Source: a virus
IMG/VR virus record: IMGVR_UViG_3300030101_001132
Span: 1 to 28,183 of that record
Reading direction: 5' to 3' (one strand)
Length of the DNA stretch: 28,183 nucleotides
In this document: one piece after another, positions 1 through 4,577 of the stretch
Numbering within the stretch: position 1 is the stretch's first letter
How the letters are laid out: each line of letters begins with the position of its first letter
Position numbers and translations under genes: made by a program
The notes under the pieces: generated by a model
Databases searched by the model: none
What the model was told of the DNA's origin: nothing
Seen by the model: the letters and a program-made list of their open reading frames with translations, nothing else

Positions 1-864
1 CACCCATGTTGATTTGCCAGCGTGCTTTTCCATAATTTTTTCTCGATTTAAACAAATTAAATTCATTTTGTTAAGGTACTTTTCTAAATTTTTTGGTTTT
101 AAAAATTCGCAATTATCTGGAGAAAACACCTCGCAGCTATTTTCATTTACAACTACAAGATGAGGTTTTTTTCTTGTAGCCAAATAATAAAAGGCAACTT
201 GTAAAATATGTTCTTCCCATCCCATATATTTTTCTTTTATTTTTACTACAGAAAAGCTGCTAGTGCCGTCTGCTTTTGGTTTATTTTTCTTTCTCCATTT
301 TGTTTTAAGCTCCACAAAATTGTGCATATCCTCAAAATCCACTCTCCCGATAACTGGCAACTTGCAATCTGGAAGATCTAAACTTACAGATCTTTCGCAT
401 TCAATTGGCTCTTTCATACCAACTTTATCTAAACCTTTTTGTAATTGGTCCCAGGTTAGTGCTAAAGAATTTTTGTTTGCATCGTGTTTTAATTGGTCAT
501 TATCATCAACTGGTTCATATTTATTAAATCTTTCAACAGCTGCCTCAAAAATTTTCTTTTCTTTTTTAATTTCTTTTTTGGTTAAGCCAGATCCTTTTTC
601 GTACTTCCAAATAAAATTTCCGTATTTTTTTTGTGCAAGCTCTCCAACAATAACACCGCTAAACATATTAGTATTACCAGGTAAATTGCGTCTTTCTTCT
701 TGTGATAAATATAAATATTTATAACCCCACATATCATCTGCTGCATTTATTTGGCTGGGACTATGATGGTTTAAATTATAAAGTTTAACCCATGCTGGAA
801 GTTTTTTTATAGAATTAATCCAATCGTTTAATTCATTTAATTTTGCATCTTCTTTTAAAATCAT
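1..864 (-). CDS. PD-(D/E)XK exonuclease (RecB/Cas4-like), C-terminus cut by window edge
   Basis: An uninterrupted minus-strand frame of 288 codons runs from an ATG at 864 to base 1 with no stop, so the gene continues to the left. It carries the PD-(D/E)XK nuclease core: GRVD (Asp176), VELKTK (Glu185, Lys187) after a short loop, and then a QVAFYY helix (Gln222, Tyr226) typical of the RecB/Cas4 branch. An SPSQIN stretch (about 35-40) and a GELAQ helix (about 74-78) match the usual N-terminal part of phage RecB-like exonucleases (PDDEXK_1). Such enzymes degrade DNA ends during phage replication or recombination. It is the only convincing minus-strand gene, diverging from the late genes across a shared control region. 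No good Shine-Dalgarno precedes the ATG. The exact biological role is inferred from the family. Confidence 0.85.
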   Translation of the reverse strand, partial: MILKEDAKLNELNDWINSIKKLPAWVKLYNLNHHSPSQINAADDMWGYKYLYLSQEERRNLPGNTNMFSGVIVGELAQKKYGNFIWKYEKGSGLTKKEIKKEKKIFEAAVERFNKYEPVDDNDQLKHDANKNSLALTWDQLQKGLDKVGMKEPIECERSVSLDLPDCKLPVIGRVDFEDMHNFVELKTKWRKKNKPKADGTSSFSVVKIKEKYMGWEEHILQVAFYYLATRKKPHLVVVNENSCEVFSPDNCEFLKPKNLEKYLNKMNLICLNREKIMEKHAGKSTWV

Positions 865-873
865 AAATCAATA

Positions 874-897
874 GAACATTTATAAAATAATTTTGAA
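874..897 (-). repeat. Operator/promoter-like element, left copy
   Basis: Reading on the minus strand, this 24-nt element matches the copy at 1006-1029 at 21 of 24 positions. Shared ends are TTCAAAAT and TATAAATGTTC. It lies about 10 nt upstream of the exonuclease ATG. It could be an operator for the neighbouring Cro-like protein, or a phage promoter with a TATAAA -10 box. Confidence 0.55.
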
Positions 898-1005
898 TAA
901 AATAAAAACAAAATCAAACTTTTATTTTTTTTTCAATTAATAATTGTGTGGGGAACGCAAGGGATAACTTTTATTTTTTTTCCACACACTTAACAGACAC
1001 CAATG

Positions 1006-1029
1006 TTCAAAATATTTCTATAAATGTTC
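1006..1029 (+). repeat. Operator/promoter-like element, right copy
   Basis: This is the inverted partner of 874-897 (21 of 24 identical on opposite strands), 37 nt upstream of the Cro-like ATG. ATGTTC also occurs twice in direct order around it (1003-1008 and 1024-1029). Both copies face outward to their own gene, as expected for a two-sided switch. I did not notice another copy in the other intergenic gaps. Confidence 0.55.
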
Positions 1030-1066
1030 GTTTGCTTTTTCGGTAATTGAGAAAGATAAAAAGATT

Positions 1067-1264
1067 ATGACGCTTGAGCAATTTAGAAAATCAAAAGGCT
1101 ACTCACATAAAAAACTTGCAGAATTTTTAGGAATAACTGGCGTGTCGCCAGAGGGTTCCGTTTGCCGTTGGTGTACTGGCGAAAGAATACCAAGAAAAAA
1201 AACAATTAAATTAATAAAAGAAAAAACAGATGGCAAAGTAAAGGCTGCAGATTTTTATGTCTAA
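1067..1264 (+). CDS. Cro/XRE-like helix-turn-helix regulator
   Basis: This 65-aa protein is about the size of a lambda-type Cro repressor. The first 60 residues look like a single HTH_XRE fold: TLEQFRKSKGYSHKKLAEFLGI (helices 1-2), then GSVCRWCTGERIP with the recognition-helix-to-turn pattern VxRWxxGxRxP, then a final helix and the ADFYV tail seen in many alphaproteobacterial phage Cro-like proteins. It is the first gene right of the divergent control region and so probably binds the paired 24-nt elements there, controlling the leftward exonuclease module, the rightward late module, or both. Its 3' end overlaps the next gene by 8 nt. DNA targets and direction of regulation are inference. Confidence 0.8.
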   Translation: MTLEQFRKSKGYSHKKLAEFLGITGVSPEGSVCRWCTGERIPRKKTIKLIKEKTDGKVKAADFYV

Positions 1265-1967: not shown

Positions 1968-2331
1968 TTATTTTAACAAAGGCGATCCCTATTCGGAATG
2001 GCACAGATCTTTAAAAAACGATCTTGGTTATATTGATATTGATAGCTGCGGTCTTTGTTTAAAATGCAAATATCCTCTTTACCTTGCAGAAACAGCTTTC
2101 GATGTTGGTCAAAAATATAAGGCTACAACTACAACAGAGGCTTTGGCTAAATTGGCTGGTCTGCCGAGTTTTTTAATTTTTTATAAAGTTAATGATGAAA
2201 GAGAAGTTATTAAATTAAGAGTGCAGCAGCTCACGCCACAAAAAGGCGAGCTTATTACTATGGATCCTGGAGCCTGGGTTCAAGCTATGGAATTAATGAA
2301 AGATAAACATTTAAAGGATTGTAAAAAATGA
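1954..2331 (+). CDS. Conserved phage protein with CxxC pair, possible nuclease-like fold
   Basis: A 125-aa protein from the ATG at 1954 (TTG at 1951 is in frame just upstream). AAGGA at 1946-1950 is close to the start. The N-terminus is MARNNYFNKGDPYSEWHRSL. Residues about 28-60 read YIDIDSCGLCLKCKYPLYLAE, with cysteines spaced CxxCxxC, followed by AFDVGQKYKATTTTEALAKL and a buried LPSFLIFYKV strand. An acidic IDID, an AE in the next strand and a hydrophobic strand later loosely resemble a PD-(D/E)XK layout, but the canonical lysine is not evident. I therefore call no enzyme. It overlaps the next gene by ATGA. Confidence 0.6.
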   Translation: MARNNYFNKGDPYSEWHRSLKNDLGYIDIDSCGLCLKCKYPLYLAETAFDVGQKYKATTTTEALAKLAGLPSFLIFYKVNDEREVIKLRVQQLTPQKGELITMDPGAWVQAMELMKDKHLKDCKK

Positions 2332-2936
2332 GCTTATATTATGTGGGGGATCTAAATATTTTAGCAGACACAAAGCTCACGGCTCTTGATAAGTTAGTTT
2401 ATTTTGCTTTGGTTTCGTATATGAACAAAGATAGCGGCAAATGCTTTCCCAGGTACGAAACAATAAAAAAAAGGCTTGGCTCTTCTGCTGGGGTTAGATC
2501 TATACAACGCAGCTGCAAAAACCTTGCCAGACACAACTATATTACGATTAAACGCTTATCTAGCTCGAACCTTTATTTATTAACTCGACAACTGGAATTA
2601 GAGAAAGTTATTAAAAAGAGAGTGATAAGCCTCTCTGGCTCTAGTGATAGGTCTAATAGGCGTTTATTAATAAAACCATATAATTTAACTAATAGTAGAT
2701 TTAATAGAAAGAGAGAGTTTATATCCGCACCCCAGCTTGAAAAACAATTTATAGAACATAAAAAAGAAATCTACAAAGAGAGTGGACGGGAGGGTCCCTG
2801 GATTGAGTATAGAAGTGATAAAGGAAAAAAGATCCGAAAGCATAGTTTCAAAAATATAATTGAAGAAATTAAGGAGAACACCCGCCAAAAAAAGTTTAAT
2901 GCTGCTGCCAGAAAGGCGGTGGCTTTATGCGGTTAA
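2328..2936 (+). CDS. Winged-helix (HTH_36-like) DNA-binding protein
   Basis: A 202-aa protein. Residues about 15-90 form the winged helix typical of HTH_36 replication-initiation-like phage proteins: LTALDKLVYFALVSYMN, then CFPRYETIKKRLG, then VRSIQRSCKNLARHNYITIKR as recognition helix and wing. The remaining half is Arg/Lys-rich and low in hydrophobic residues, likely a flexible nucleic-acid-binding tail. Such proteins are often annotated as replication or plasmid-initiator relatives. Here it sits just before the packaging genes, so either replication or transcription control is possible. It starts in an ATGA overlap and overlaps the next gene by 10 nt. Confidence 0.7.
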   Translation: MSLYYVGDLNILADTKLTALDKLVYFALVSYMNKDSGKCFPRYETIKKRLGSSAGVRSIQRSCKNLARHNYITIKRLSSSNLYLLTRQLELEKVIKKRVISLSGSSDRSNRRLLIKPYNLTNSRFNRKREFISAPQLEKQFIEHKKEIYKESGREGPWIEYRSDKGKKIRKHSFKNIIEEIKENTRQKKFNAAARKAVALCG

Positions 2937-4112: not shown

Positions 4113-4136
4113 CTAATTTGCTAAAAAAGCAATTAG
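4113..4136. other. Hairpin upstream of accessory gene pair
   Basis: CTAATTTGCT and AGCAATTAG form a 9-bp stem with one bulged T and a loop of five A. There is no T-run after it, so it is not an obvious intrinsic terminator. It ends three bases before the AAAGGAG ribosome binding site (4139-4145) of the next gene, where it could affect translation or stabilise a processed 5' end. Confidence 0.4.
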
Positions 4137-4151
4137 TGAAAGGAGTACATT

Positions 4152-4577
4152 ATGTTTAAAAATGTATCGTTATGTTATCTAAAAAATTTAGATGGCAAAA
4201 AAATTCCAATTTCTAACGCTAGGGATTGGGTTCAAGCGCAACATACAACAATGTCTTGGAATGCAACAGAGGTAAGATATAACTCTTTTGCTTTTGATAA
4301 CTATGTTAAAAAGTTGTGGTTGAAAGGTCTTGAAGTATTACAAAAAGAAAATAAAAATTTTGTAATTACTTTAAATGACAAAGGAAGAAATTGGCAAGGT
4401 TTTAGAACATATAATTATGTTAAAAAACCAATAGCCAAATTTAAAAAGATAGTTTGTTATGTTCCTTTAGTTAAGAAAAAATTAAAAGGATCTAGCAAAA
4501 AATATCATCCAACAAGCTACTTAAATAAATTTATCTTAGATCAAGATAAAAATTTTATTTCAAAGGAGGTTGTTTAG
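4152..4577 (+). CDS. Hypothetical basic protein
   Basis: A 141-aa Lys-rich protein with no family I recognise. Visible features: an N-terminal SLCYLKNLDGKKIP strand pair, a WVQAQHTTMSW segment rich in Trp and His, and a YNYVKKPIAKFKKIV strand before a very basic VKKKLKGSSKKYHP stretch. It has no signal peptide and no membrane segment. The start has one of the best ribosome binding sites in the window (AAAGGAG, 6-nt spacing), preceded by a 78-nt gap with a hairpin. Its last codons carry the ribosome binding site of the next gene, so the two are a coupled pair. It is likely an accessory gene inserted between the terminase subunits. Confidence 0.65.
   Translation: MFKNVSLCYLKNLDGKKIPISNARDWVQAQHTTMSWNATEVRYNSFAFDNYVKKLWLKGLEVLQKENKNFVITLNDKGRNWQGFRTYNYVKKPIAKFKKIVCYVPLVKKKLKGSSKKYHPTSYLNKFILDQDKNFISKEVV

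What the first reader, a model, noticed from the sequence alone, without database searches (positions are those of the whole stretch)
865..1066. Two-sided genetic switch: paired inverted 24-nt elements beside a Cro-like gene in a T7-like virion module
A T7-type phage would not be expected to need a lambda-like switch. Here a minus-strand nuclease and the plus-strand late genes diverge from a 202-nt gap with two outward-facing copies (21/24 identical) of one element, and the first rightward gene encodes an HTH protein of Cro size. Each copy ends in TATAAATGTTC pointing to its gene. The layout suggests either mutually exclusive early/late expression or a temperate remnant.
Basis: partly seen in the sequence, partly recalled or inferred. 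Interest (0 to 1): 0.62.

Follow-up and report, generated by a model that had tools for sequence, protein, structure and literature searches.

The report
Repressor-less lambda-type switch in SAR11-type phage
The two-sided gap is the early control region of a probably temperate ocean phage related to the HTVC010P phages of SAR11 bacteria; most close relatives carry a lambda-like repressor gene there, this one lacks it but keeps a Cro-like protein and sites resembling those of the DNA-damage (SOS) response, so it bears on how such phages choose between dormancy and killing.

Summary
In detail: a 202-nt divergent gap, two outward 24-nt copies (21/24 identical) and a Cro-sized HTH gene. Corrected for AT-rich composition the pair is moderately unlikely (5 of 2000 shuffles), and it is not conserved as a pair even in the closest relative (Cro 92% identical). 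Relatives show what the gap is. The window is a fragment of an HTVC010P-type podophage without recognised RNA polymerase, from a branch with integrase and an adjacent tRNA-Pro. Most relatives have nuclease <- cI | cro ->, a lambda-type immunity region; in the window and seven other loci cI is missing. The conserved Cro/CI operator is another sequence: a 15-bp palindrome TTGNC-N5-GNCAA, at 1032-1046 here, which recurs in relatives over the cI start, before the integrase operon and after terS. The left copy is the nuclease-operon promoter. In relatives this promoter carries GTTY-N7-GTTY, the alphaproteobacterial LexA (SOS) box type, in 31 of 38 distinct cases, and the operon encodes a 71-aa LexA DNA-binding domain. 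Both window copies contain a degenerate LexA-type box over TATAAAT. Best reading: a lambda-type switch that lost its repressor, leaving Cro and LexA-type control. Binding and transcription are untested.

The parts
1..864 (-). RecB/lambda-exo-like nuclease, first gene of the leftward operon (C-terminus cut by the window edge)
   Evidence: Homologue of the 'putative nuclease' HTVC034P gp15 by position; sequence shows GRVDFED-x-ELKTK and QVAFYY motifs of PD-(D/E)XK nucleases; no Pfam or PHROG match
874..897 (-). Left 24-nt copy = core of the leftward promoter pL; TATAAA as likely -10
   Evidence: position homologous to pL of relatives
874..888 (-). Degenerate LexA-type box ATTT-TATAAAT-GTTC
   Evidence: Rank 8 of about 56,000 positions with a matrix made from relatives only; relatives carry GTTY-N7-GTTY here in 31 of 38 distinct promoters
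978..986 (+). DnaA-box-like TTTTCCACA
   Evidence: 13 of 25 distinct relatives have [AT]TCCACA-type sites before cro, 0.36 expected
1006..1029 (+). Right 24-nt copy, upstream of the cro promoter
1015..1029 (+). Degenerate LexA-type box TTTC-TATAAAT-GTTC
   Evidence: Rank 3 of about 56,000 positions; both sides together P 2.5e-4 by shuffling
1032..1046 (+). Predicted Cro/CI operator TTGCTTTTTCGGTAA, overlapping the -35 (TTGCTT 1032-1037) of the cro promoter; weak -10 GATAAA 1055-1060
   Evidence: Palindrome TTGNC-N5-GNCAA at this place in all close relatives
1067..1264 (+). cro: 65-aa Cro-like HTH protein
2328..2936 (+). Replication-initiator-like gene of the rightward operon
   Evidence: PHROG replication initiation families, Pfam HTH_36
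4118..4132 (+). Second operator-like palindrome TTGCTAAAAAAGCAA between terS and ORF 4152-4577
   Evidence: Best-scoring site of the window; relatives carry operators at the same place

Best explanation
The gap is the left/right early control region (pL-pR, lambda-type) of a temperate-lineage HTVC010P-type phage, in a variant lacking the cI repressor gene that stands between the two promoters in most relatives. Cro (65 aa) is predicted to bind the palindrome at 1032-1046, over the -35 of its own promoter, and to shut off the rightward operon; in relatives the same operator marks the cI start codon, the integrase operon and a site after terS. The leftward operon (nuclease, annealing protein, SSB, mini-LexA, integrase) is predicted to be held by a LexA-type repressor, the host's or the phage's own 71-aa LexA DNA-binding domain, at GTTY-N7-GTTC over the -10, which would couple the phage to DNA damage. 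In the window both promoters carry a degenerate version of that box; together with the shared TATAAAT core this is the 24-nt pair. Shown by sequence: gene layout, cI absence, conservation of operator and box, integrase and tRNA-Pro in relatives. Inferred: binding, start sites, LexA as ligand, temperate life, SAR11 host.
For: cI between nuclease and cro in most close relatives and absent in eight loci; integrase and tRNA-Pro in the closest relative L003; operator matrix trained on cro sites alone finds sites at cI start, integrase operon and after terS; GTTY-N7-GTTC at pL in 16 of 25 distinct promoters against 0.06 expected, spacer 7 only, and 31 of 38 GTTY-N7-GTTY in a larger set; LexA-DNA-binding-domain-only protein in the operon; window boxes ranks 3 and 8, joint P 2.5e-4; GTTCN7GTTC as alphaproteobacterial LexA box (PMC12700426).
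Against: The window's boxes are degenerate on both sides and L003, the closest relative, keeps neither well. The window's cro operator is weak (10.5 bits). No SAR11 genome was reachable to see the host's own LexA boxes. Integrase and mini-LexA lie outside the window, so their presence in this genome is assumed from L003 and others.
Confidence: 0.6

Rival explanations
1. One reading: the 24-nt pair are two operators of the 65-aa Cro-like protein that make leftward and rightward transcription mutually exclusive.
For: Two outward copies beside a Cro-like gene, better than chance.
Against: The pair is absent as a pair in L003, L013 and the cI-bearing relatives, while Cro is 69-92% conserved and another palindrome is present in all of them. 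The copies are not palindromic, as Cro-type operators normally are (general knowledge).
Confidence: 0.1
2. The copies are two ordinary AT-rich promoter cores (TATAAA -10 boxes) whose further likeness is chance; no LexA-type protein acts on them in this phage.
For: AT-rich gap; p only about 0.003 for the pair; boxes degenerate; L003 lacks them; 53 sites within one mismatch of GTTY-N7-GTTC in the whole window.
Against: Both lie exactly where relatives have pL and the cro promoter; joint P 2.5e-4 for box scores on both sides; L013, another cI-less phage, also has a box-like site before cro.
Confidence: 0.25
3. The copies are promoters of a phage-encoded single-subunit RNA polymerase, or transcribed antitermination signals (boxA/nut-like) at the head of both early operons.
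For: Several relatives share TGTTCTMTTGA at both operons, a little like boxA; a 24-nt repeat is about the size of a T7 promoter.
Against: Only two copies in the record; no RNA polymerase among window ORFs or in the HTVC034P and HTVC010P annotations; HTVC010P-type phages are held to use host RNA polymerase (PMC10504331). TGTTC is missing from the cro side of a whole branch.
Confidence: 0.04

Closest known systems
Phage lambda immunity region (OL/pL - cI - OR/pR - cro)
   Same: In relatives: recombination operon leftward, cro and replication genes rightward, cI between, shared palindromic operator at cro and at the cI start, integrase
   Different: Window lacks cI; operators were recognised at cro, cI, integrase operon and after terS, but not clearly at pL, which carries a LexA-type box instead; CI has no recognised S24 protease domain
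GIL01 of Bacillus thuringiensis: temperate phage without its own classical repressor, held by host LexA, with gp6, a truncated LexA homologue (PMC4551915, PMC6182141)
   Same: Predicted LexA-type control of an early promoter and, in relatives, a phage-encoded LexA DNA-binding-domain-only protein
   Different: Different phage group and host phylum; integrase present in relatives; Cro and its operator kept; nothing tested at the bench
Gifsy, 186 and N15 prophages: non-cleavable repressor, LexA-controlled antirepressor (PMC3121763)
   Same: In cI-bearing relatives: CI without recognised protease domain plus LexA-type box on another early operon
   Different: No antirepressor gene identified here
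Cultured HTVC010P-type pelagiphages (HTVC010P, HTVC034P, Skadi; proposed Ubiqueviridae)
   Same: TerL 60-64% identical, nuclease divergent from a Cro homologue
   Different: No integrase or cI annotated in HTVC010P and HTVC034P; no strong palindrome found at their cro with this matrix

Membership tests
Lambda-type immunity region | Cro-like HTH gene heading the rightward operon with an operator at its promoter | tested here: met
   HTH family hits and model; palindrome at 1032-1046
Lambda-type immunity region | Divergent cI repressor next to cro | tested here: not met
   Absent from the window; present in most close relatives
Lambda-type immunity region | Integrase and attachment site in the same genome | tested here: inconclusive
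   Outside this fragment; present in L003, L004, L015 with tRNA-Pro beside integrase
Alphaproteobacterial LexA regulon | GTTC-N7-GTTC box over the promoter | tested here: inconclusive
   Strong in relatives' pL; one mismatch on each side in the window
Alphaproteobacterial LexA regulon | Binding by LexA and induction by DNA damage | not testable with these tools
   Needs protein and infected cells
GIL01-type LexA-held phages | No phage repressor; LexA maintains lysogeny | tested here: inconclusive
   cI absent from this fragment and from the 37.6 kb contig of cI-less L046; the role of LexA is untested
HTVC010P-type pelagiphages | Shared terminase and virion module | tested here: met
   TerL 60-64% over 99% of length
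T7 group (Autographivirales) | Single-subunit RNA polymerase and its repeated promoters | tested here: not met
   Element occurs only twice; no polymerase recognised in the record or in the HTVC034P and HTVC010P annotations; the record is a fragment

The most novel reading that the evidence does not exclude
Phages of this branch repeatedly discard their lambda-type repressor while keeping integrase, Cro and operators, and in some (window, L013) LexA-type sites then stand on both divergent early promoters, so that host LexA or a phage-encoded truncated LexA takes over the lysis/lysogeny decision.
Probability: 0.2. Interest if true: 0.75.

Novelty: new variant of a known kind. Interest (0 to 1): 0.5.

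Why it matters
HTVC010P-type phages are among the most abundant viruses in the sea. If one branch carries a lambda-type switch wired to the SOS response, with the repressor gene present or absent between genomes that are otherwise about 88-98% identical, then whether and how SAR11 is lysogenised becomes testable with named sites and proteins.

Tried and rejected
T7-style promoter: only two copies, no polymerase. Shared TGTTCTMTTGAY as a boxA/nut-type signal: motif missing from the cro side of one branch; not pursued. The 24-nt pair as the conserved operator: not upheld in L003 and L013. Exact search for the element in IMG/VR: none. A replacement repressor in cI-less L046: its unshared ORFs show no convincing HTH (a 54-aa protein has a weak E 0.006 match to a repressor domain). 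Host SOS boxes: no SAR11 genome was reached. Nuclease structure model too poor to use (pLDDT 39). Upstream regions of S. meliloti and Cereibacter lexA were looked at as a check; both carry box-like sites.

Full report
Observation. The gap 865-1066, the copies 874-897 (-) and 1006-1029 (+), and the 65-aa HTH ORF are as described. The copies differ at three of 24 positions. Their match is better than chance in this AT-rich gap, but moderately: 5 of 2000 shuffles.

What phage this is. TerL is 60-64% identical to cultured HTVC010P-type pelagiphages. The window is a 28,183-base virus record without a recognised RNA polymerase, so the T7 premise of the finding does not hold, although several virion genes are T7-like in name. 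SAR11 as host is inferred from these relatives.

Relatives. Searches with Cro and with the nuclease brought in over a hundred loci. In most of the close ones the leftward genes are cI, nuclease, annealing protein, SSB-like protein, LexA-like protein and integrase, and the rightward genes are cro, small genes, replication initiator and terminase. L003, the closest (Cro 92%, nuclease 79%), has no cI but has integrase with a tRNA-Pro beside it. Eight loci lack cI: window, L003, L013, L046, L048 (with its near-copy L051), L055, L056 and L150. On the nuclease tree well-supported branches force at least four changes. L046 and the cI-bearing L041 are 88-98% identical over most of their length and share a 98% identical integrase. 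Against L034 the cI stretch of L046 is simply missing between flanks of 97% and 90% identity; L013 against L012 is the same, 93% and 82%. L046, L048 and L150 share nearly the same cro promoter next to different nuclease promoters, which suggests exchange of the repressor-less module by recombination. No cI turns up elsewhere in the cI-less contigs, while two cI-bearing controls score E about 1e-116.

The operator. A 15-bp palindrome TTGNC-N5-GNCAA starts 34-41 nt before cro in every close relative. A matrix trained only on such cro sites then finds copies over the cI start codon, in a cluster of two or three before the integrase operon, and after terS in several genomes. Cro and CI are the obvious ligands. 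In the window it is TTGCTTTTTCGGTAA at 1032-1046, weak (10.5 bits) but in the exact place, and there is a second, TTGCTAAAAAAGCAA at 4118-4132; the same 15-mer stands before the integrase operon of L003.

The pL box. Upstream of the nuclease 16 of 25 distinct promoters hold GTTY-N7-GTTC, 0.06 expected, and no other spacer from 3 to 12 gives any. In a larger set 31 of 38 hold GTTY-N7-GTTY. The box moves relative to the start codon between branches but persists. This is the form of the alphaproteobacterial LexA box (GTTCN7GTTC; PMC12700426). The same operon encodes a 71-aa protein that is only a LexA DNA-binding domain (PF01726), whose best matches in the plasmid collection are mostly alphaproteobacterial LexA-type proteins, comparable to gp6 of GIL01 (PMC6182141). 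CI of relatives has no recognisable S24 domain, so an SOS link through LexA rather than CI cleavage, as in Gifsy phages (PMC3121763), would be coherent. That step is inference.

Back to the pair. The copies contain ATTT-TATAAAT-GTTC (874-888, -) and TTTC-TATAAAT-GTTC (1015-1029, +). With a matrix from relatives they rank 8 and 3 among about 56,000 positions of the window, and both sides together have P 2.5e-4 by shuffling. L013, another cI-less phage, also has a box-like GTTA-ATGAAAT-GTTC before cro, whereas its near-identical cI-bearing kin do not. L003 does not support the pair. The shared element is therefore best read as two promoter cores carrying a degenerate LexA-type box, and the Cro operator is the neighbour at 1032-1046.

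Limits. There are no binding or transcript data and no SAR11 genome was available; the left part of this genome is missing from the record. The number of independent cI losses rests on one gene tree, and recombination blurs it.

Verdict. A real control region, lambda-type by layout, of an unusual repressor-less kind.

Noticed in passing
window 4118-4132; L005, L015, L040, L041, L055 after terS: Operator-like palindrome just after terS and before variable accessory genes in several genomes, so a small accessory region may be under Cro/CI control.
   Followed up: partly
window 978-986; L013, L015, L034, L037, L039, L040, L041, L047, L050 about 60-90 nt before cro: DnaA-box-like [AT]TCCACA sites recur before cro (13 of 25 distinct regions, 0.36 expected); possible origin or DnaA input.
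   Followed up: partly
L046 versus L041 and L034; L013 versus L012: The repressor gene is present or absent between otherwise closely related integrase-bearing genomes.
   Followed up: yes
L003 2642-2718, L004 3062-3138, L015 3363-3439: A tRNA-Pro (TGG) gene sits beside the integrase, the likely attachment site.
   Followed up: partly
L018 30568-30768 (HTVC010P) and H62-H76: The cultured HTVC010P and Skadi phages, with no integrase or cI seen, keep a Cro homologue divergent from the nuclease.
   Followed up: partly
L102 (NHDJ01000020.1, titled Verrucomicrobia MAG): The contig holds a 69% identical mini-LexA and looks like a phage contig binned into an unrelated MAG.
   Followed up: no
just upstream of the nuclease start, e.g. 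window 865-873 (-), L046, L057: A short CTATTGATTTG is conserved before the nuclease start codon, separate from the LexA-type box; role unknown.
   Followed up: no
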